Program-made: the position numbers and the translations under genes
DNA from: Fischerella sp. PCC 9605
GTDB taxonomy: Bacteria; Cyanobacteriota; Cyanobacteriia; Cyanobacteriales; Nostocaceae
Assembly (NCBI RefSeq): GCF_000517105.1
Contig: NZ_ALVT01000034.1
Location: 187,101 to 251,100, forward strand
DNA length: 64,000 nt
Direction: 5' to 3'
Part shown: positions 42,912 through 58,224 of the stretch, piece after piece
How positions within the stretch are numbered: the first letter of the stretch is position 1
Layout of the letters: the number at the start of each line of letters is the position of its first letter
Notes under the pieces: generated by a model
What the model was told of the DNA's origin: nothing
Database searches by the model: none
What the model saw: the letters and a program-made list of their open reading frames with translations, nothing else

Positions 42912-44267
42912 ATGGTGAAAATTGTAACACGCAGACCGCTAGGCACACAGAACGTATATGACATTGGAGTAGAGAGCGACCATAATTTTGTCATCAAAAA
43001 TGGTTTGGTAGCTTCCAATTGTTTCAACAAATCTCACTCCACAGCTTACGGTTATGTAACATATCAAACTGCGTATTTAAAAGCTAATTATCCTTTGGAA
43101 TATATGGCGGCACTGTTGACAGCTAACAGTGGCGATACAGATAAGGTGCAGAAATATATTGCTACCTGTACCAATATGGGTATTCAAATAGACCCACCAG
43201 ATATTAATCGCTCTGGCGTAGATTTTACTCCCGCGGGTGGCAAGGTTTTGTTTGGATTGTCGGCTGTGCGGAACGTGGGACAAAGTGCGATCGCTTCTAT
43301 TTTAGAAGCCAGAGAAAGCGGGGATGAGTTTAAATCTTTGGCTGATTTTTGCGATCGCGTCGATCTGGGTGCTGTTAACCGCCGTACTTTAGAGTCACTA
43401 ATTTATTGTGGAGCCTTTGACAAAATTGACTCAAACCGCAACCAGTTACTTCACGACTTGCCCCTAGTTTACGACTGGGCACAATCTCGTGCCAAAGATA
43501 GAGCTACCGGTCAGGGAAACCTCTTTGATTTATTAGGTGGTGGATTCTCTAATATTAATAATAACAATCAAGCTCAAAACAGTTTTGACATTGCACCGAA
43601 AGCCAAACCTGTTCCTGATTTACCTCCCCAAGAAAAGTTACGCAGAGAAAAAGAATTATTAGGTTTTTATGTATCAGACCATCCACTCAAATCTATACGA
43701 AACTCAGCGCGCGTCCTAGCTCCAATTAACCTTTCACAACTGAGCGATCAAAAAGAAGATACAGTAATTTGTGCCGTGGTTATGCTCAACAATGTGAAAA
43801 AAGTGATCACCAAAAAGGGCGATCCAATGGCAATTTTACAAATAGAAGATTTAACTTCACAATCAGAAGCAGTAGCATTTCCTAAATCTTACGAACGCAT
43901 TAGTTCACTGTTACAAGTTGATGCCAGATTAATAATTTGGGGTAAAGTAGATCGACGAGACGACCAAACTCAATTTATTGTTGAAGATGCTGAGCCGGTA
44001 GAAACAGTACAGATGGTGATGGTGGAATTGAGCACTCAACAAGCAGCGACTATTGAAGAACAGCATCGCTTGCGAACAATTCTGCAAGAACAATCAGGGG
44101 ATAAAGAAAAAGCAAAAGTACCGATAATAGGAATTGTCCAGGCTGGGAACTCTCGTCATCTTGTCCGTTTTGGACGACAATTTTGGGTGCAAGATTCTAG
44201 AAGTACTGTTCTGGCTTTGCAAAACGCCAGGTTCCTTGCTCATGTACAACCGCTTATTAATACCTAA
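42912..44267 (+). CDS. dnaE: DNA polymerase III alpha subunit C-terminal half with split intein C-domain
   Basis: Residues 1-36 (MVKIVTRRPLGTQNVYDIGV and following, ending N36) are the C-terminal half of the trans-splicing DnaE intein, with block F around NVYDIGVESDHNF and the terminal N36. Residue C37 starts the extein CFNKSHSTAYGYVTYQTAYL. The extein is the C-terminal part of the replicative polymerase: finger/tail region, helix-hairpin-helix, and an OB fold from about 290. The matching DnaE N-half fused to the intein N-half must be encoded elsewhere in the genome. Splicing joins the two into active PolC-alpha. 451 residues; ATG 42912. Confidence 0.97.
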   Translation: MVKIVTRRPLGTQNVYDIGVESDHNFVIKNGLVASNCFNKSHSTAYGYVTYQTAYLKANYPLEYMAALLTANSGDTDKVQKYIATCTNMGIQIDPPDINRSGVDFTPAGGKVLFGLSAVRNVGQSAIASILEARESGDEFKSLADFCDRVDLGAVNRRTLESLIYCGAFDKIDSNRNQLLHDLPLVYDWAQSRAKDRATGQGNLFDLLGGGFSNINNNNQAQNSFDIAPKAKPVPDLPPQEKLRREKELLGFYVSDHPLKSIRNSARVLAPINLSQLSDQKEDTVICAVVMLNNVKKVITKKGDPMAILQIEDLTSQSEAVAFPKSYERISSLLQVDARLIIWGKVDRRDDQTQFIVEDAEPVETVQMVMVELSTQQAATIEEQHRLRTILQEQSGDKEKAKVPIIGIVQAGNSRHLVRFGRQFWVQDSRSTVLALQNARFLAHVQPLINT

Positions 44268-47135: not shown

Positions 47136-48602
47136 TTAGATAACACAACTCAGCGATCTAATATCATTCACTGTTTGTCTGTCCACCGATATAGGAATTT
47201 CAATGCAGAACTCGCTTCCCTGACCCGGTTCTGATACGCATGTCAGTTTTCCTCCGTGTTTTTCAACAACAATTTGATAGCTAATCGATAAGCCTAGCCC
47301 TGTCCCCTTACCTACTGGCTTAGTTGTAAAAAATGGATCAAACAGTTTTGCCTTAACTGCTTCAGTCATCCCTGGGCCATTGTCAGCAATTCGGATTGCA
47401 ATATAGCTTGTTTCTAAAACTTCTGTAGTAATTGTAATGGTATTAAAATTATCTTGAATTCCTATACTATAATCTTTTATGTTATTGCTCTCAATAGCAT
47501 CAATAGCATTACTAATAATATTCATGAAGACTTGGTTTATTTGTCCAGGATAACACTCTATTAAAGGTAAATTACCGTAGTTTTTTACTATTTCTATACC
47601 TGGTTTATCACCTTTGGCTTTGAAGCGGTTTTGTAAAATCAGCAGAGTACTCTCAATACCTTCGTGAAGATTAACCCTTTTCACCTCTGCTTCATCAAGA
47701 CGAGAGAAGTTGCGAAGAGACAACACAATGTCCCTGATGCGTTCTGCACCTATTTTCATAGAATTTATAGTTTTGGGTAAATCTTCAAGTATGTAATCTA
47801 ATTCATTTTTACGAATATACTCTTGTATTTTTGGTACAATATGGCAATTAAAAGTTTTATATAAATTTAATAACTTAAATAGGTCTTGAGTATATTGTTC
47901 AACATAATCTAAATTGGCGTAAATAAAATTTACAGGATTGTTAATTTCGTGTGCAATTCCTGCTACCAACTGACCTAGACTGGACATTTTCTCAGCTTGT
48001 ATTAATTGGGCTTGAGTATGCCGTAATTCTCTGAGAGATTGTTCTAGTTTTTGGGCTTGTTCTTCAGCAACTTTAGCCAAATTTTCTTGTATTGCCAGAG
48101 CACGCTGTAATTCTGCCCGCTGCTTAGTTAGTTCTGTTGTTAACTTTTCAGCATCAGCCAGAGCAGAATTCTTTGCTTGTAGTAGGAATAAAAAATCAAC
48201 AATTGGATCGTGAATGGCAAAGTCTTTTAATTTGATATTTAGAGGAATGAGATTAGCAGCATCAGTAATCCAGGGAGAACAAAGAAAAAATATCAATTCC
48301 TCTTCTGGTTGATATACCATTTGACCTTTGAGTTGCATTCCATTGCGGAGAAACTCCAATATGAAAAGAGCGTGAGTTTGTTTTTTAATAGCATCAAATT
48401 CAACTGTGACCTTAGGGCGATTGATTTGAAAATACTGCTCAATTTTGCTTCCTATTATTTGTTCACAACTAATGCGCTCTAGAACAGCACCAGCTTGTAA
48501 AATTTCTCGTTGGCGGTTAAATACAAAGTGGAATGGAAAAGCCTTTGTAAATAATTCTGGCGAAAGACTCAGATGAGGAGAAACCATACATACTGACCTC
48601 AC
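47136..48602 (-). CDS. Sensor histidine kinase with HNOBA domain, partner of H-NOX
   Basis: A 488-residue protein. Residues about 10-150 form an HNOBA (heme NO binding-associated) domain ([20 protein letters not shown]), followed by a coiled coil at 145-205. The kinase core has H-box [13 protein letters not shown]-box [14 protein letters not shown], and G boxes DNGPGM and [11 protein letters not shown]. It receives signal from the H-NOX protein, whose stop overlaps its GTG start in GTGA (48602-48599), giving translational coupling. The first ATG of the family-like sequence is at 48587. The response regulator is not in the window. Confidence 0.9.
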
Positions 48603-49150
48603 TGTGGTTTATATTTCACTAAAAATTCATCATGATCGGCACCTTCATCCCTACTTTGGGTTTGGGAAATATCCACTTCTGTATCAAACCTTTTTCCTAA
48701 TCCCTTGACTAGACCCATTACCATTGGAGTCAGTCCTTCTCGGGTTGAGCGATAATGTAAGTTTAGAGACTCTTCTTCTGTATCAGTACACTCAAAAGAT
48801 GGGGGCATTAGCTTAGGAAAACTAATTCCTACACGAGCGTGAAGATTGTCAAGGTTTTCCAGAAATTCAGGTAGGTTATCCCCGCTCATATCCATCAGTT
48901 CGCCGTAGCCTTCCTCTGCTGTGTACTGTACCCAATATTCTCCAAAAGCTTGCATAATTTCTGCGGCTGATAAACCTAAGACAACACTTGCAGCTTTTAC
49001 AAGCCTATGAGTCATATCATCGGGATAGGCTTCCATACTGATAAAAACATCTACTTCTAGTTCAGCTTTCTGCTTAATTTCTTGCCAGGTATTTTTGCCA
49101 AAGCGACCGCATACCATCTCTTCAATCGCCTTGTTGACTAATCCATACAT
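48599..49150 (-). CDS. H-NOX heme nitric oxide sensor
   Basis: A 183-residue soluble haem protein that binds NO (and CO). From ATG 49150, with AGGAGG upstream, the proximal haem ligand is H104 (DNLHARV) and the porphyrin-binding Y-x-S-x-R motif is YRSTR at 133-137. W74 lies in the distal region. A distal-pocket tyrosine as in O2-binding H-NOX proteins is not seen at the equivalent site (140 is L), which argues for NO selectivity. It is operonic with the HNOBA histidine kinase, the classic bacterial NO-signalling pair. A longer frame to 49171 is less likely. Confidence 0.93.
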
Positions 49151-49359
49151 AAAGCCTCCTGATTGATGCACCCATTAGAGTTTGTGAATTAGACTCAATA
49201 ATCTTATGCTCTACAGCAGTTTTAAAAATTTTTATATCTGCTGTATAAATATATTATTTTGCGTTTGCTTAATTGCCTGAAAAAAGAGAAAAAATGCAAT
49301 AAACTTCCTGCTATTTTAAGCAATTTATCCAGAAAAATAGCATCCGTAATTTCACTCTT

Positions 49360-50106
49360 TTAGCTTACCGATTGCCATGCATTCAAAAGCAAAAATGGAT
49401 TAGCATTCAAGTCAGGTTCGTGAATTTGACGCTGAATCCCATTAAAGAATTGCACACGGGCATCCATTGCCTCGACAATAGCAAGCTTTAGCTTGACCTC
49501 TTCTTCTTCTGTAGTTAACCGAGGTTCAATCAGTGCTGCGAGTTTTGCCGCATGGCTATCATCCACATCAATATGGACTTCAAAAAATATCAAAGATTCC
49601 TTGGATAAAGGTGCAGCGCCAATAATGCCTTGATAAAGTTGAGTGTATAGCGTACTCACAATTCCTTCAGATGCGTAACACACTGCCCCAAGTGCAGCTA
49701 AAAAACCATACTGATGCGGTATCCGTAGGTACGTATCAACTAAAGCTCTAGTTTCAGGTATTGTGGGCAGCATTGCTAAAATATCGTCATCGATACCAAT
49801 AGCACGGGTAAAACGACGAAATAACTCGGGATGGGATTGATTTAAATCCCCCTGTCCCATTTCGTCAAACAAGTTCTCTAAGAGGACTAACTGAGCGCTT
49901 TCATCTTGGCAGCAAGATAAAATACTAGCCAAAATTCGATTAAATTCTTTGGAGAATTTGTACATTTGAACGGCTAGTAAGCGTACCTCTTGTAAAGACA
50001 ACTGTCTAGTACTACAGCGACTGAGGAAATCATGCTTCCACAGTGGATGATGAGCCGTAATTTCCCGTAAGGATTCGTGAATAGAACAAGATAGCTGTGT
50101 CATCAT
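49360..50106 (-). CDS. Heme-oxygenase-fold (TenA/CADD/HDO-like) iron-containing enzyme
   Basis: A 248-residue all-helical protein of the TenA-like/heme-oxygenase-like diiron superfamily. Candidate metal ligands follow the HDO pattern: E77 or E82, H92, E147, H178, D182 and H185, in LLENLFDEMG, SHPELF, YASEGIVS and FEVHIDVDDSHA. Such enzymes oxidise amino-acid or natural-product substrates. ATG 50106 overlaps the stop of the methyltransferase by four bases (ATGA), so the two are translated together. The substrate is not predictable here. A thiaminase TenA is the alternative but its active-site pattern is not clear. Confidence 0.78.
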   Translation of the reverse strand: MMTQLSCSIHESLREITAHHPLWKHDFLSRCSTRQLSLQEVRLLAVQMYKFSKEFNRILASILSCCQDESAQLVLLENLFDEMGQGDLNQSHPELFRRFTRAIGIDDDILAMLPTIPETRALVDTYLRIPHQYGFLAALGAVCYASEGIVSTLYTQLYQGIIGAAPLSKESLIFFEVHIDVDDSHAAKLAALIEPRLTTEEEEVKLKLAIVEAMDARVQFFNGIQRQIHEPDLNANPFLLLNAWQSVS

Positions 50107-50873
50107 CGTAATACTTGTATGGCTAGATGGAGTGGTAAATCAATCAAAGAACCGAAAAAAGATTCATCTAGTGCTATGTGTTCTGGAGTAACCCGTAATT
50201 CCCGCAAAGTTGGCATCGTATTGAAGCCAGCGTTTTTGAGGGCATCAAAGTAGTCTTCTAAGGTTTTGTGAACCAATTGCACATTTAGCCAAGACCCATC
50301 TCTTTTCCAAATACGACCCGGAAATTGCCAATCTCGCTTGCTGAAATAGCCTTTACCCTCAACCTCAAAATAGAAGGGATAGGCAGCTTCCCGCATGTAT
50401 GGAAAAGATGGATGTGGAACACTGAAAACAAATCGACCCCCTGGACGAAGTACACGTGCAACTTCGGTCATGCATTGTTGAGTTTGAACAGTTGTCAAAT
50501 AGTTAAATAGAAACACTGCTATGACTAAGTCAAATTCGCGATCGCCAAATTGTTTGAGGTCAGTAGCACACCCTAATTCATACTGAATACCCAAGGGATC
50601 TTTTAATTCCTGCAATTTTGCTCCTGCAATCATCGCTTCAGAGAGATCTACACCATATATTTGGGCAGCACCTCTTTGGCGTAATTCCCGAGAGCAATAA
50701 CCTTCACCACAACCCAAGTCAAGCACTCGCAACCCAGCAACAGGCTCACAAAGCTTTAGTACGAAAGGGCGTGCCGTAAAATCAGAAAGTGAAGTCGGTT
50801 CTCCTCGAATCCACTGTGATGCTGTGCCGTTATAAAGGTTTTTAGTGGAATTTTTGTTATCTGAGTTTGGCAT
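50103..50873 (-). CDS. SAM-dependent methyltransferase
   Basis: A 256-residue class I methyltransferase. SAM motif I is RVLDLGCGEGYCSREL at about 49-64, with an acidic loop (GVDLSEAM), motif post-I, and the later FDLVIAVFLFNYL and RPGGRFVFSVPHPSF blocks. The acceptor substrate is unknown. It is upstream of, and translationally coupled with, the heme-oxygenase-fold enzyme, and divergent from the 2-oxoglutarate oxygenase-like gene. Together these look like a tailoring set. Confidence 0.88.
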   Translation of the reverse strand: MPNSDNKNSTKNLYNGTASQWIRGEPTSLSDFTARPFVLKLCEPVAGLRVLDLGCGEGYCSRELRQRGAAQIYGVDLSEAMIAGAKLQELKDPLGIQYELGCATDLKQFGDREFDLVIAVFLFNYLTTVQTQQCMTEVARVLRPGGRFVFSVPHPSFPYMREAAYPFYFEVEGKGYFSKRDWQFPGRIWKRDGSWLNVQLVHKTLEDYFDALKNAGFNTMPTLRELRVTPEHIALDESFFGSLIDLPLHLAIQVLR

Positions 50874-51627
50874 GTTGACAGATTTATCTAGTAATCAGGT
50901 TTAAATAAATACAAGTATGAGGATTGTTGGTAGTTGATGATAATAGTTACTGCTTTCTCAAAAGCATAAGCAAAGTAAGTGCGCTTTTTTCGCCGATTGT
51001 AGGAACAACAAACGACAAAAATAAGTTGCAGTAAATACGTGTGTTAATACCTATCTATTTAGTTTTTAGAAAAGTTACATTTGATGAGATATTTCTTTTG
51101 TATCATTTGTATATTTTGTTGATAATGTTGATTGTACGGATTTTTGTCTTATTGATTTTAATCTTATTTTTTCAGGTAGCTAGCTGTTTGTATCTACCAA
51201 TCTTTATAAAAGTTTGTTAATGTTGCTGATGAGCAAAATATTTATTTAACAAATTTATTGCTCAAAAATTATTTTTAGCTTTAACTTTATATTGGATTTA
51301 TAAAAAAATTCAGAGTAAATACCCTACTAAAACAATTTTATTTGGAGAATATTAGTAGCAAAGTGTAAATAAACATGACTATCAAGTGTGTTTAGTGTGA
51401 TTGATAAGTTGTTAGTTTTACCAAATAACAAACAATCAACAACTAGTAATTATCAGTAAAAATCAACCACCGAGCGCAAAGAGGTCGAAAGTCAATAATT
51501 AAAATTTGTTGACTCTACCTTACCCTACGGCATGCTTTTGACTACTGCGTGAATACAACAGCAGCTTGCCCTAGGAAATGGTATTAGCCACTACACTAAC
51601 TTCTAGTAAATGATAGAAAGGATAATA
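50874..51627. other. Long divergent promoter region
   Basis: About 750 bases of AT-rich DNA between two divergent enzyme genes. GTTGATAATGTTGAT repeats and poly-T/A tracts occur near 51090-51330. A GCAGCTTGCC-type palindrome and a CTACGGCATGC site lie near 51525-51575. No frame or RNA is supported. Its length suggests complex regulation. Confidence 0.4.
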
Positions 51628-52623
51628 ATGGCAAAATTATTAGCAAAGCCAAAATTAGATAAACAATTAGAACTAGAGCAAGCGATCGCATTCTCTGAGT
51701 TAGGCGATCGCCTGTTTGATGAACTTAGCGATCGTATTTCTACTAAACGGCAGTATCGGCTGCTGTTTGAACACAAGTTAAAGCCTGAATTATTTCAGCA
51801 GATCCAAATTGCTGCTGCTGGTTACATTTCAGCCTGCCTAAACAGTCCTATCATTCTCTCGGAAGAGGAAATGCTCCAGAGATTACTCGAACAGAGAAAT
51901 ACTCTGTCGAACTACACTGGCACCGGACTTTTAATGCCAAAGCGAGAACATACTTTGGCTTTTAACCTCTTTCAAAGAAGTGTAGCTGAAGCTTTTTACC
52001 AATTAGGAGCTAACGATCTGATCGATGCAGTAGATTTACCAGTAAATCTCCGTATGGTTTATGGTAAAACCGATCCAGAAAAAACTCGTTTGCCTTTCGC
52101 AAGCTCAAAGCTACATAGCGATGTCTGGGCAGGTGTTCCTGCTGATGCAACAGTTGTAATTTTGCCCCTCTTTGGTGATATTGAAAACATCACTATCGAA
52201 GCTGGTGAAATGCCCCGCGAAATGGAACTCAAAGCAATGCGGATCATGTCCGACTTCGATGAAGGTAGGGATATTCCAATGGTTGTCTCCTACACAGAAG
52301 CACAATTACAGCACGGTACGATGTATTTTAATGATGCTCGTGGATTGCACCAAACAGTCAGACGTCAAACAGATGGTGTGAGAATTTCAGTAGATTTTAG
52401 GTTCCGCAGAAAATTCAATAAAGTATATCGGGCAATGTTGTCACCAAGTCTTGGTGGTGTAGAGCAAGATATGAGTGTACCTTACGAAGAATGGCTAAAG
52501 GTTGGTAAAGAAACACTTATTATATTTGATGAAACTATCGAGGAGGCAAAGTTCAAACGCAATAGCAGCAGTTCTGTTCCGCTATATATGCGTGGATATC
52601 GTCTCCTGAAAATGTTTGACTAA
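51628..52623 (+). CDS. 2-oxoglutarate/Fe(II) oxygenase-like protein (StrG-like)
   Basis: A 331-residue protein whose C-terminal half has the jelly-roll iron pattern H163-x-D165 (SKLHSDVWAGVP), H241 (GLHQTVRR) and R252 (GVRISVDFRF). The order H-x-D then H then R matches 2-oxoglutarate-dependent oxygenases, and the HSDVWAG context resembles StrG-type proteins of aminoglycoside pathways. The N-terminal 130 residues are helical and unfamiliar. I chose ATG 51628 because GAAAGGA lies 6 bases upstream; an in-frame ATG at 51610 is possible. It is divergent from the methyltransferase/oxidase pair. Confidence 0.7.
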   Translation: MAKLLAKPKLDKQLELEQAIAFSELGDRLFDELSDRISTKRQYRLLFEHKLKPELFQQIQIAAAGYISACLNSPIILSEEEMLQRLLEQRNTLSNYTGTGLLMPKREHTLAFNLFQRSVAEAFYQLGANDLIDAVDLPVNLRMVYGKTDPEKTRLPFASSKLHSDVWAGVPADATVVILPLFGDIENITIEAGEMPREMELKAMRIMSDFDEGRDIPMVVSYTEAQLQHGTMYFNDARGLHQTVRRQTDGVRISVDFRFRRKFNKVYRAMLSPSLGGVEQDMSVPYEEWLKVGKETLIIFDETIEEAKFKRNSSSSVPLYMRGYRLLKMFD

Positions 52624-52747
52624 ATCATATTTGGTCATCGATCGCATAGTTTGATAGTGCAGGCATTTCACCTGAGTAGGCAAGATGCTTGCACTATTTT
52701 TGTATTAAGCCAGATATATTCACCTCTTCTGGCAACTGACAAATAAC

Positions 52748-52774
52748 ACAAAAAAGAGGTCTGATTGACCTCTT
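52748..52774 (-). terminator. Intrinsic terminator of the apc operon
   Basis: On the minus strand AAGAGGTC, a 5-base loop and GACCTCTT run into TTTT. It lies 44 bases beyond the apcC stop. Confidence 0.88.
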
Positions 52775-52817
52775 AGCAACTCCCTACAATCAATAATTTG
52801 GTCTATTAGGAATTAAA

Positions 52818-53021
52818 TTAAGCTAAACCAGCATTTGTTCCTTGCTTACCAGTAGCCAATTCTACCTTAACAATTTTACCGCCCATTTTTTGAATACGTT
52901 GCTGTTCGCGGAACCAGTTCTCATAGGGAACTAACTTAGTGAAGTAAGTATTTTGCAATTCCCGCTGGGTACGAATTCTAGTTTGGCTAGGAACGCAAGC
53001 AGTAATTTTAAACATCCGCAT
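52818..53021 (-). CDS. apcC: Phycobilisome small core linker (allophycocyanin-associated, Lc7.8)
   Basis: A 67-residue linker that caps the ends of allophycocyanin core cylinders. The sequence MRMFKITACVPSQTRIRTQR, the basic TQRELQNTYFTKLVPYENWF and REQQRIQKMGGKIVKVELAT show the CpcD-like fold of this linker. It is the third gene after apcA and apcB on the minus strand. A strong terminator follows. The 226-base gap from apcB holds a possible leader or processing site. Confidence 0.96.
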   Translation of the reverse strand: MRMFKITACVPSQTRIRTQRELQNTYFTKLVPYENWFREQQRIQKMGGKIVKVELATGKQGTNAGLA

Positions 53022-53247
53022 GGTCTTAAATCTCCTGTAGCTGGGGTGAAAACTTTTTTATCTCAAAATCTTGAGTGCAAATCTGTCTTTATTTACTGCA
53101 AGGCTGGAAATCAGGCGTCAATACCAGACCGTTAACACTCATCATTCATAAATTTAGCTTGATAAGCGATATAACGTCCTAGCACTCACGATTGATTTCC
53201 AGTCCTTAATTAAAGTCGCACCTAAATTATTAAGCGCAAACTAGTTC

Positions 53248-53733
53248 CTAGCTCAAGCCAGAGCTAATATAGTCGAAGTAAACGCCCATTTCCTTTCCAG
53301 CGTCTGGACCAACCAAGCTAGCGGTTACTTCCTTCATAGCTTGGATAGCTTGTACGGTAGCTCCTACGGGTACACCCAAGGAGTTGTAGGTTTCCTTCAA
53401 ACCATTCAGTACGCGCTCATCCAAAATGGAGGGGTCGCCAGCCAGCATAGCATAGGTTGCATAGCGCAGGTAGTAATCCAAATCGCGGATACAAGCTGCA
53501 TAGCGGCGAGTGGTGTACATGTTACCACCGGGACGGGTGATGTCAGAGTACAGCAGAGACTTAGCAACAGCTTCCTTCACAATCGCAGCAGCATTAGCAG
53601 CGATGGTGGTAGCAGCACGTACGCGCAGTTCACCAGTATTGAAGTAGCTCTTGAGTTTCTCTAGAGCTGCGGTGTCGAGGTACTTACCTTGAACGTCCGA
53701 AGAATTAATAACAGCGGTAATTGCGTCTTGCAT
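53248..53733 (-). CDS. apcB: Allophycocyanin beta subunit
   Basis: A 161-residue phycobiliprotein of the phycobilisome core. The PCB attachment cysteine is C81 in [15 protein letters not shown], and the asparagine normally methylated is N71 in GGNMYTTR. The globin-like helices are complete. It pairs with ApcA to form (alpha-beta)3 discs. It is 65 bases downstream of apcA. Confidence 0.97.
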
Positions 53734-53798
53734 GTTGTTATTTCCTTATTTCCAACCGTATTGCAATACTTCTGTTTCAATAGGAGAAACAGCTTCAC

Positions 53799-54284
53799 CT
53801 ACGACATCGCGCCAACGAGGTAGTCGAAGTAAGCGCCAGCTTCAGCAGCGTCTTCACCAGACAACAGGGAAGCAGCAACATTCTTCATTGCGTTGACACC
53901 GCCAGCAACGGCATCGATAGGAGTTCCGAGAGACTTGTACATTTCACGGACGCCTACAACACCGATTTCTTCGATGGGGGTGACATCACCAGCTACGATA
54001 CCGTAGGTGATGAGGCGGAGGTAATAATCCAAGTCACGCAGACAGGTAGCGGTCATTTCTTGACCGTAAGCGTTGCCACCAGGAGATACAACATCAGGGC
54101 GCTTTTGGAACAGCTGGTCACCAGCTTGCTTAACAATCCGCTCGCGGTTGTCTGTCAAAACTTGAGCAATCCGCAGACGGCGCTCACCGCTGGTAACAAA
54201 GCTCTTGATCCGATCCAGTTCGCCAGGGCTGAGATAGCGGGCTTCTGCATCTGCATTCACGATGGACTTCGTGACGATACTCAT
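53799..54284 (-). CDS. apcA: Allophycocyanin alpha subunit
   Basis: A 161-residue phycobiliprotein. The chromophore cysteine is C81 in [13 protein letters not shown], with the family-typical [18 protein letters not shown]. It heads the apcABC unit; a long leader of about 200 bases contains a candidate RpaB (HLR1-like) site. apcE is upstream on the same strand at 494 bases distance. Confidence 0.97.
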
Positions 54285-54505
54285 TAATGGATTCCTCCAA
54301 AACGTAATGAAACCAGAATTTAATTAAACTGGTGCGACTTTACGGGTTGACTGAGCTTATGTTCTCGTTTTTTAGACTCAACAGTCAAATAACTGCTGAA
54401 ACTATTACATTTCGAGCCTGCTTGAGTAATTACAAGTACACAAGCCTTGAAACTCAGCTACCTTCCGGAATTATTTTCGGGCATTATGTTGAGCATATAT
54501 GACTG

Positions 54506-54523
54506 CTTTTAACAGTTTGTAAC
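54506..54523 (-). promoter_or_regulatory. Candidate HLR1 (RpaB) direct repeat upstream of apcA
   Basis: Read on the minus strand, GTTACAAA is followed by two bases and GTTAAAAG. This fits the 8+2+8 layout of HLR1 sites; the second half has two deviations. A TATATGCT -10-like motif lies about 12 bases downstream. The distance to the start codon is about 220 bases. Confidence 0.4.
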
Positions 54524-54594
54524 ATTCTTTTTCATGTTTGCTGTTGCAGCAACAATATTAAAGCAATGTTACGAAAGATTGCAAATAGGGCATA

Positions 54595-54775
54595 GGGGAT
54601 TGGGTAAAGGGTAAAGGGTAAAGGGTAAAGGGTAAAGGGTAAAGGGTAAAAGAATTTATTAACCTTTCACTTTTCTCCTTTTCCCCTTCCCCCTCTTGTT
54701 TTTCCGATGCCCCATGCCTATTGCCCTATGCCCGTTGCCCGTTGCCCATTGCCCTATGCCCTTGTCCTCCCTAGG
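54595..54775. repeat. Composite repeat copy B with seven GGGTAAA heptamers
   Basis: GGGGATTG leads into seven perfect GGGTAAA units (54602-54650), then AGAATTTATTAACCTTTCAC, a C-rich stretch and GATGCCCC/TTGCCC-type units ending at the apcE stop. The layout is the same as at 16048 and 58472. Confidence 0.9.
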
Positions 54776-54777
54776 CT

Positions 54778-58224
<3,447 letters not shown>

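What the first reader, a model, noticed from the sequence alone, without database searches (positions are those of the whole stretch)
47136..52623. NO-sensing pair beside an oxidase/methyltransferase/2OG-oxygenase trio
H-NOX and its kinase overlap by four bases; the next two genes on the same strand also overlap (methyltransferase and heme-oxygenase-fold oxidase), and a StrG-like oxygenase diverges from a 750-base promoter region. Three tailoring-type enzymes with metal centres together suggest a small-molecule pathway, possibly a signal controlled by nitric oxide.
Basis: inference. Interest (0 to 1): 0.6.

Follow-up and report, generated by a model that had tools for sequence, protein, structure and literature searches.

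The report
NO-sensor-linked oxidation gene cassette
In many cyanobacteria a nitric-oxide sensor and its kinase sit beside the same three enzymes (a methyltransferase and two oxidases that probably use iron, fused into one protein in one strain), which points to an undescribed small-molecule pathway tied to nitric-oxide sensing whose product is still unknown.

Summary
The neighbourhood is strongly conserved. A scan of 84,980 species genomes with OG gave 43 loci, all cyanobacterial, and 41 of 43 hold all five genes, in several arrangements and with different outer neighbours. In one Pleurocapsales strain HDO and OG are a single 558-aa protein between MT and H-NOX. Dependence runs one way: H-NOX/HK is common without the trio, but no intact trio was seen without H-NOX. 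HDO keeps six diiron ligands in 34 of 34 sequences and lacks both CADD pABA-synthase residues. OG matches no family by sequence and aligns as a distant PhyH-like Fe/2OG oxygenase; "StrG-like" is unsupported. Best reading: an accessory oxidative biosynthetic module governed by the NO sensor. Linkage is shown; substrate, product and direction of control are inferred. No prior description was found in the papers searched.

The parts
47136..48602 (-). HK: histidine kinase with N-terminal HNOBA domain, partner of H-NOX
   Evidence: HNOBA 7.9e-31, HATPase_c 1.8e-23, HisKA 1.1e-6; beside H-NOX in 20 of 20 trio-less loci examined too
48599..49171 (-). H-NOX NO sensor, conserved start at about 49150
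   Evidence: PF07700 2.9e-57; best PDB sequence match Alr2278, 256 bits
49360..50106 (-). HDO: heme-oxygenase-like diiron oxidase; ligands E82, H92, E147, H178, D182, H185
   Evidence: PF14518 3.6e-29; model pLDDT 88.9, nearest PDB folds CADD, HrmI, UndA, BesC; ligands in 34 of 34
50103..50873 (-). MT: class-I SAM-dependent methyltransferase, 4-base overlap with HDO
   Evidence: Methyltransf_25 1e-22; nearest PDB sequence ToxA-type, 68 bits
50874..51609 (.). divergent intergenic region between MT and OG, with short blocks conserved in relatives
   Evidence: alignment of 38 regions; related one-mismatch elements at about 51127-51139 (towards MT) and 51454-51466 (towards OG)
51610..52623 (+). 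OG: orphan protein, probable PhyH-like Fe/2OG oxygenase (H169, D171, H247, R258)
   Evidence: no family match; hhalign to PhyH E 2.8e-4 with decoys at 0.042 or worse and shuffles at 0.018 or worse; H169, D171, H247, R258 invariant in 32

Best explanation
A five-gene cassette in which MT, HDO and OG form one oxidative pathway for a small molecule, an accessory module of an H-NOX/HNOBA-kinase NO sensor. HDO (O2-activating diiron) and OG (mononuclear iron, 2-oxoglutarate) most likely act one after the other on the same compound, and MT methylates substrate or product. The likeliest substrate is an amino acid or an amine derived from one. H-NOX binds NO and alters the kinase, which through an unlinked response regulator (or, in two Leptolyngbya-like genomes, an HNOBA-GAF-PAS-GGDEF-EAL protein within the gene run) sets whether the trio is made or its product used. 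Shown: gene content, conserved linkage, fusion, intact diiron ligand set, one-way dependence on the sensor. Inferred: OG cofactor, substrate, product, order of reactions, direction of control.
For: OG occurs in exactly the six of 291 order genomes that hold the close HDO type, and H-NOX lies beside it in each. 41 of 43 OG loci from the species-wide scan hold all five genes; 12 of 43 show neither apc nor rodA in the stretch held and still keep the five. Order and strand vary (37 divergent, 4 co-linear of 41) while linkage stays. HDO-OG fusion of 558 aa inside MT-[HDO-OG]-HNOX-HK. Trio absent as a unit at the apc/rodA locus in L107; relic of OG only in L131. HDO ligands intact in 34 of 34. Precedent for HDO followed by an Fe/2OG enzyme on an amino acid: HrmI/HrmJ and BelK/BelL (PMC10764440, passages).
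Against: No expression, metabolite or biochemical data. No response regulator lies in the cassette of the window. The OG assignment rests on a remote profile match (probability 41%) and its model failed (pLDDT 45). No known regulator box is general in the divergent region and the shared element is post hoc and absent from the outlying loci. Most loci are Nostocales and not independent.
Confidence: 0.55

Rival explanations
1. The trio makes the sensor's ligand: HDO N-oxygenates an amine, MT and OG process it, and the product releases NO (or nitroxyl) that H-NOX reads, a NO source independent of NO synthase.
For: The trio was never seen intact without H-NOX. Some HDOs are N-oxygenases: SznF makes a nitrosourea after methylation of arginine, HrmI a nitro group (PMC13108848, section 8); HrmI and RohS are among the fold matches.
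Against: 22 of 28 H-NOX genomes lack the trio, so H-NOX has other NO sources there. HDO is nearer to CADD and BesC than to HrmI (2.2e-18, 2.4e-12, 1.9e-6), and SznF was only a very weak match (0.37).
Confidence: 0.12
2. The trio degrades or detoxifies a compound that accompanies NO (for example a nitro or nitroso compound of host or neighbour), under NO control.
For: Oxygenases with a methyltransferase can detoxify; the NO sensor would be a sensible switch. Same linkage data.
Against: Nothing points to a particular toxin; the conserved HDO-OG fusion and fixed set of three fit a defined pathway equally well or better (inference).
Confidence: 0.15
3. The linkage is incidental: a block inherited with the apc/rodA locus of Nostocales, with the enzymes unrelated to H-NOX.
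For: Many loci do lie between apc and rodA in one order; distance correlations of 0.87-0.93 had no species-tree control.
Against: 12 of 43 loci show neither apc nor rodA in the stretch held and keep the five genes; order and strand differ in L100, L101, L102, L105; HDO-OG fusion directly before H-NOX.
Confidence: 0.08
4. HDO is a housekeeping enzyme: a CADD-type 4-aminobenzoate synthase or TenA thiamine-salvage enzyme.
For: Nearest solved fold is CADD; TIGR04305 96.5 bits and Pfam TENA_THI-4 32.1 bits, the latter above its cut-off of 22.
Against: TIGR04305 cut-off is 200 bits. The CADD Tyr27 and Lys152 positions are Leu in 34 of 34 and Leu/Ile in 34 of 34, while 18 of 18 other cyanobacterial CADD-like proteins examined have Tyr and Lys. 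Six metal ligands are kept, whereas the thiazole and PQQ enzymes of this fold are metal-independent (PMC13108848, introduction).
Confidence: 0.03

Closest known systems
H-NOX/kinase and H-NOX/diguanylate-cyclase pairs (Shewanella HnoX-HnoK, Legionella Hnox1-Lpg1057; PMC8846402, passages)
   Same: H-NOX beside an HNOBA kinase; in L100 and L101 also a GGDEF-EAL protein
   Different: Three biosynthetic-type enzymes are fixed neighbours here; the reviews' passages name kinases and c-di-GMP enzymes as partners
Alr2278 (Nostoc H-NOX, PDB 2o09 and others)
   Same: Best PDB sequence match, 255-256 bits
   Different: Only the H-NOX itself; its own gene neighbourhood was not examined here
HrmI/HrmJ and BelK/BelL (HDO then Fe/2OG enzyme, nitrocyclopropane amino acids; PMC10764440, passages)
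   Same: An HDO paired with an Fe/2OG enzyme acting in turn
   Different: HDO nearer to CADD and BesC than to HrmI; OG not compared directly with HrmJ; a methyltransferase and NO sensor are added here
SznE/SznF streptozotocin route (PMC13108848, section 8; SznE as methyltransferase recalled)
   Same: Methyltransferase, HDO and a mononuclear-iron domain, with a fusion
   Different: Fused partner is a cupin in SznF, a probable PhyH-like protein here; SznF match very weak
CADD-type 4-aminobenzoate synthases
   Same: Same fold and six metal ligands
   Different: The self-sacrificed Tyr and the Lys are absent in 34 of 34
PhyH-like Fe/2OG oxygenases (PF05721)
   Same: HxD...H...R order aligned by hhalign
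   Different: No Pfam match even at E 5; found only in cyanobacteria

Membership tests
H-NOX (Alr2278-type) | HNOB domain over its curated cut-off | tested here: met
   193.6 bits against 25.5
H-NOX (Alr2278-type) | YxSxR heme motif (label recalled) | tested here: met
   YRSTR present in the H-NOX frame
H-NOX (Alr2278-type) | binds NO | not testable with these tools
   needs purified protein
HDO superfamily | three His and three carboxylate ligands (PMC13108848, section 4) | tested here: met
   E82, H92, E147, H178, D182, H185 in 34 of 34; aligned with CADD and BesC
HDO superfamily | heme-oxygenase fold | tested here: met
   model pLDDT 88.9; 1rcw TM 0.79 by query, 0.91 by target
CADD-type 4-aminobenzoate synthase | Tyr27 and Lys152 (numbers recalled) | tested here: not met
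   Leu in 34 of 34; Leu/Ile in 34 of 34
TenA thiamine salvage | metal-independent TenA-type enzyme | tested here: not met
   six metal ligands kept and PF14518 scores 102 bits against 32 for TENA_THI-4, although that match passes its cut-off
Fe/2OG oxygenase, PhyH-like | HxD...H iron triad with a downstream Arg | tested here: met
   H169, D171, H247, R258 invariant in 32 of 32
Fe/2OG oxygenase, PhyH-like | homology to PhyH | tested here: inconclusive
   hhalign E 2.8e-4, probability 41%; 12 decoys 0.042 or worse, 60 shuffles 0.018 or worse
   no StrG sequence was compared; no family search named it
HrmI/HrmJ pathway | HrmI-type lysine N-oxygenase | tested here: inconclusive
   HrmI profile match 1.9e-6, weaker than CADD and BesC; substrate residues not compared
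SznE/SznF pathway | HDO fused to a cupin | tested here: not met
   fusion partner in L036 is the OG protein, with no cupin match in Pfam

The most novel reading that the evidence does not exclude
The trio is a self-contained route to a reactive-nitrogen signal: HDO N-oxygenates an amino acid or amine, and OG and MT convert it to a compound that is, or releases, the ligand of the adjacent H-NOX. That would be a NO or NO-donor signalling circuit, independent of NO synthase, encoded in one cyanobacterial cassette.
Probability: 0.12. Interest if true: 0.92.

Novelty: new variant of a known kind. Interest (0 to 1): 0.62.

Why it matters
H-NOX proteins from Nostoc are used as structural models, and the one paper on the Nostoc punctiforme H-NOX that I searched by term does not mention an operon (PMC9510103, passages). 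Here the sensor is tied to a fixed enzyme set, which gives a direct, testable output for NO sensing in cyanobacteria. It also offers an orphan oxygenase family and an uncharacterised HDO type whose partner is named by a natural fusion.

Tried and rejected
TenA or CADD housekeeping enzyme: rejected on the kept metal ligands and the missing Tyr and Lys, although the Pfam TENA_THI-4 model passes its cut-off.

StrG label: no family search named it; no StrG sequence was compared. PF10014 as the home of OG: hhalign E 0.49, rejected.

OG structure by AlphaFold: failed (pLDDT 45), so no fold search was made with it. OG on plasmids: none at E 1e-4. Distant OG relatives in 292 genomes of the phylum: five full copies and one relic, nothing else at E 0.05.

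Known regulator boxes in the divergent region (patterns recalled): NtcA-like in 9 of 38, FNR/CRP-like in 1 of 38, CRP, NsrR-like and HcpR in 0 of 38. A CAGTANANNNNAC element occurs exactly towards OG in 25 of 38 and towards MT in 13 of 38 regions, against shuffled means of 0.2 and 0.4. I picked it by eye from these same related sequences; the window has only one-mismatch copies; it was not found, up to one mismatch, in the 400 bases upstream of OG in L100, L101, L103 and L105 or of MT in L102; exact copies lay upstream of H-NOX in 0 of 41 and of HK in 2 of 42. Kept as a lead only. Sigma-70-type promoter matches in 48500-53200 were fewer than in shuffles (4 against a mean of 12.6). PADLOC gave only a methyltransferase-domain match to mad2 for MT.

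Rows dropped before counts: 2 of 22 trio-less H-NOX genomes (G165, G173; short partial matches) were not fetched. Of 24 non-cassette HDO loci, the 18 with frames of 200-320 aa were aligned. 34 of 42 HDO and 32 of 44 OG sequences went into A4 and A5. 22 of 25 PhyH loci passed a length filter for the hhalign alignment, taking the longest frame at the match. 39 loci and the window entered the distance comparison; L063 (start misplaced by my script) and L093 (kinase stub) among those left out.
Full report
WHAT IS IN THE WINDOW. On the minus strand MT, HDO, H-NOX and HK follow one another; MT and HDO overlap by four bases. OG points the other way across 736 bases. A scan of 48500-53200 gave one minus-strand terminator-like site, at 52774-52754, and none between MT and H-NOX; most of HK was outside the scan. 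Beyond OG lie allophycocyanin genes (apcB, apcA, apcE; names recalled).

CONSERVATION. In 291 genomes of the order, 39 had an HDO match; six were close (55% identity or more) and 33 were at 30% or less. OG was found in exactly those six. H-NOX was found in 28 of 291, including the six, and tblastn on 20-kb stretches of the five relatives found all five genes together in each. A scan of one genome for each of 84,980 species with the OG alignment gave 43 distinct loci, all with cyanobacterial titles. Matches to all five genes were found in 41 of 43. The exceptions are L094, where the contig ends near OG, and L098, a metagenome bin in which H-NOX, HDO and MT were not detected, the kinase is shortened and the OG frame is broken. 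In L093 only a stub of the kinase is matched near the contig end. OG diverges from MT in 37 of 41 and is co-linear in 4 of 41 (L100, L101, L102, L105); the four-base MT/HDO overlap is in 36 of 41. Twelve of 43 loci show neither apc nor rodA in the stretch held (one of them, L093, is a 5.4-kb contig), and all twelve keep matches to the five genes.

FUSION AND EXTRA PARTS. In L100 and L101 a protein with HNOBA, GAF, PAS, GGDEF and EAL domains lies between HDO and H-NOX. A GGDEF-EAL protein stands divergent to MT in L036.

ONE-WAY DEPENDENCE. Of 22 H-NOX genomes without the trio, regions of 20 were fetched. In 20 of 20 a kinase-like gene lies beside H-NOX, and in 0 of 20 was HDO, MT or OG seen within about 5.5 kb. 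L107 has apcE-apcA-apcB, H-NOX, HK and rodA without the trio. L131, from a genome in which H-NOX and close HDO were not detected, keeps only a relic of the OG 3' end between apc and rodA. So the sensor pair does without the trio, but no intact trio was seen without the sensor.

HDO. The model is good (pLDDT 88.9). Best PDB folds are CADD (TM 0.79 by query, 0.91 by target), then HrmI, UndA, BesC and PqqC, with RohS lower. By profile: CADD 2.2e-18, BesC 2.4e-12, HrmI 1.9e-6. Six metal ligands are present in 34 of 34 cassette HDOs and in 18 of 18 other cyanobacterial CADD-like proteins. The CADD Tyr and Lys positions are Leu in 34 of 34 and Leu/Ile in 34 of 34, against Tyr and Lys in 18 of 18 of the others. 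R97, R101 and R217 (34 of 34) and R57 (33 of 34) are kept in the cassette type; this may mean an anionic substrate, but their place in the pocket was not examined.

OG. No usable match in Pfam, NCBIfam, PHROGs or PDB sequences and a poor model. Profile-profile alignment with PhyH proteins from related genomes gave E 2.8e-4, probability 41%, aligning H169-x-D171, H247 and R258 with the PhyH motif. Twelve decoy comparisons gave 0.042 or worse, 60 column-shuffled versions 0.018 or worse, and PF10014 gave 0.49. I take OG as a distant PhyH-like Fe/2OG oxygenase; it is not proven. The retained Asp argues against a halogenase (recalled knowledge).

MT. A class-I methyltransferase. In 60 genomes of the family the cassette type (71% identity or more) is in 14 and is well separated from the other matches (46% or less). 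Its substrate cannot be told from sequence.

MECHANISM. The fusion points to HDO and OG acting in sequence. HDO followed by an Fe/2OG enzyme is known in HrmI/HrmJ and BelK/BelL, acting on lysine (PMC10764440, passages), and an HDO with a mononuclear-iron cupin in SznF (PMC13108848, section 8). Characterised HDOs mostly act on fatty or amino acids (PMC13108848, section 4), and HDOs with like ligands can do different chemistry (section 11), so the reaction cannot be read from the ligands. H-NOX partners are commonly kinases or c-di-GMP enzymes (PMC9500659 and PMC8846402, passages). I therefore read the cassette as an accessory oxidative pathway under the NO sensor. That the trio makes the sensor's own ligand is the boldest reading; H-NOX without the trio is common, and HDO is not nearest to the N-oxygenases.

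PRIOR DESCRIPTION. None found. Searches: (no paper); of the papers listed I saw the abstract, introduction and sections 4, 8 and 11 of PMC13108848 and passages of PMC9510103, PMC9500659, PMC8846402 and PMC10764440, and only listings of the rest.

CAVEATS. Most loci are Nostocales and not independent. Distance correlations among the five proteins are 0.87-0.93 but had no species-tree control. The species-wide scan needed one of two peptide patterns, so divergent OG proteins could be missed. L098 and several others are metagenome bins.

Noticed in passing
window 42912-44267: The frame begins like a DnaE C-half behind a C-terminal split-intein segment, as known from Nostoc (recalled, by eye).
   Followed up: no
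window 50874-51609 and 37 related intergenic regions: Short blocks are conserved about 80-130 bases upstream of both divergent genes in many Nostocales loci and share a CAGTANANNNNAC core (post hoc).
   Followed up: partly
L011, L015, L017, L020, L021, L022: Distant HDO matches in one genus (f8 g71) lie in 505-aa open frames, so a CADD-like domain there is probably joined to something else.
   Followed up: no
L100:10670-13471, L101:10638-13424: HNOBA-GAF-PAS-GGDEF-EAL protein inside the cassette, linking it to c-di-GMP.
   Followed up: partly
L123, L124, L125: H-NOX with a divergent kinase (about 30% identity) and receiver-like genes, beside long proteins of unknown kind: a different H-NOX setting.
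   Followed up: no
window 53248-58188: The apcB-apcA-apcE block is the usual outer neighbour of the cassette in Nostocales but not in the outlying loci.
   Followed up: partly
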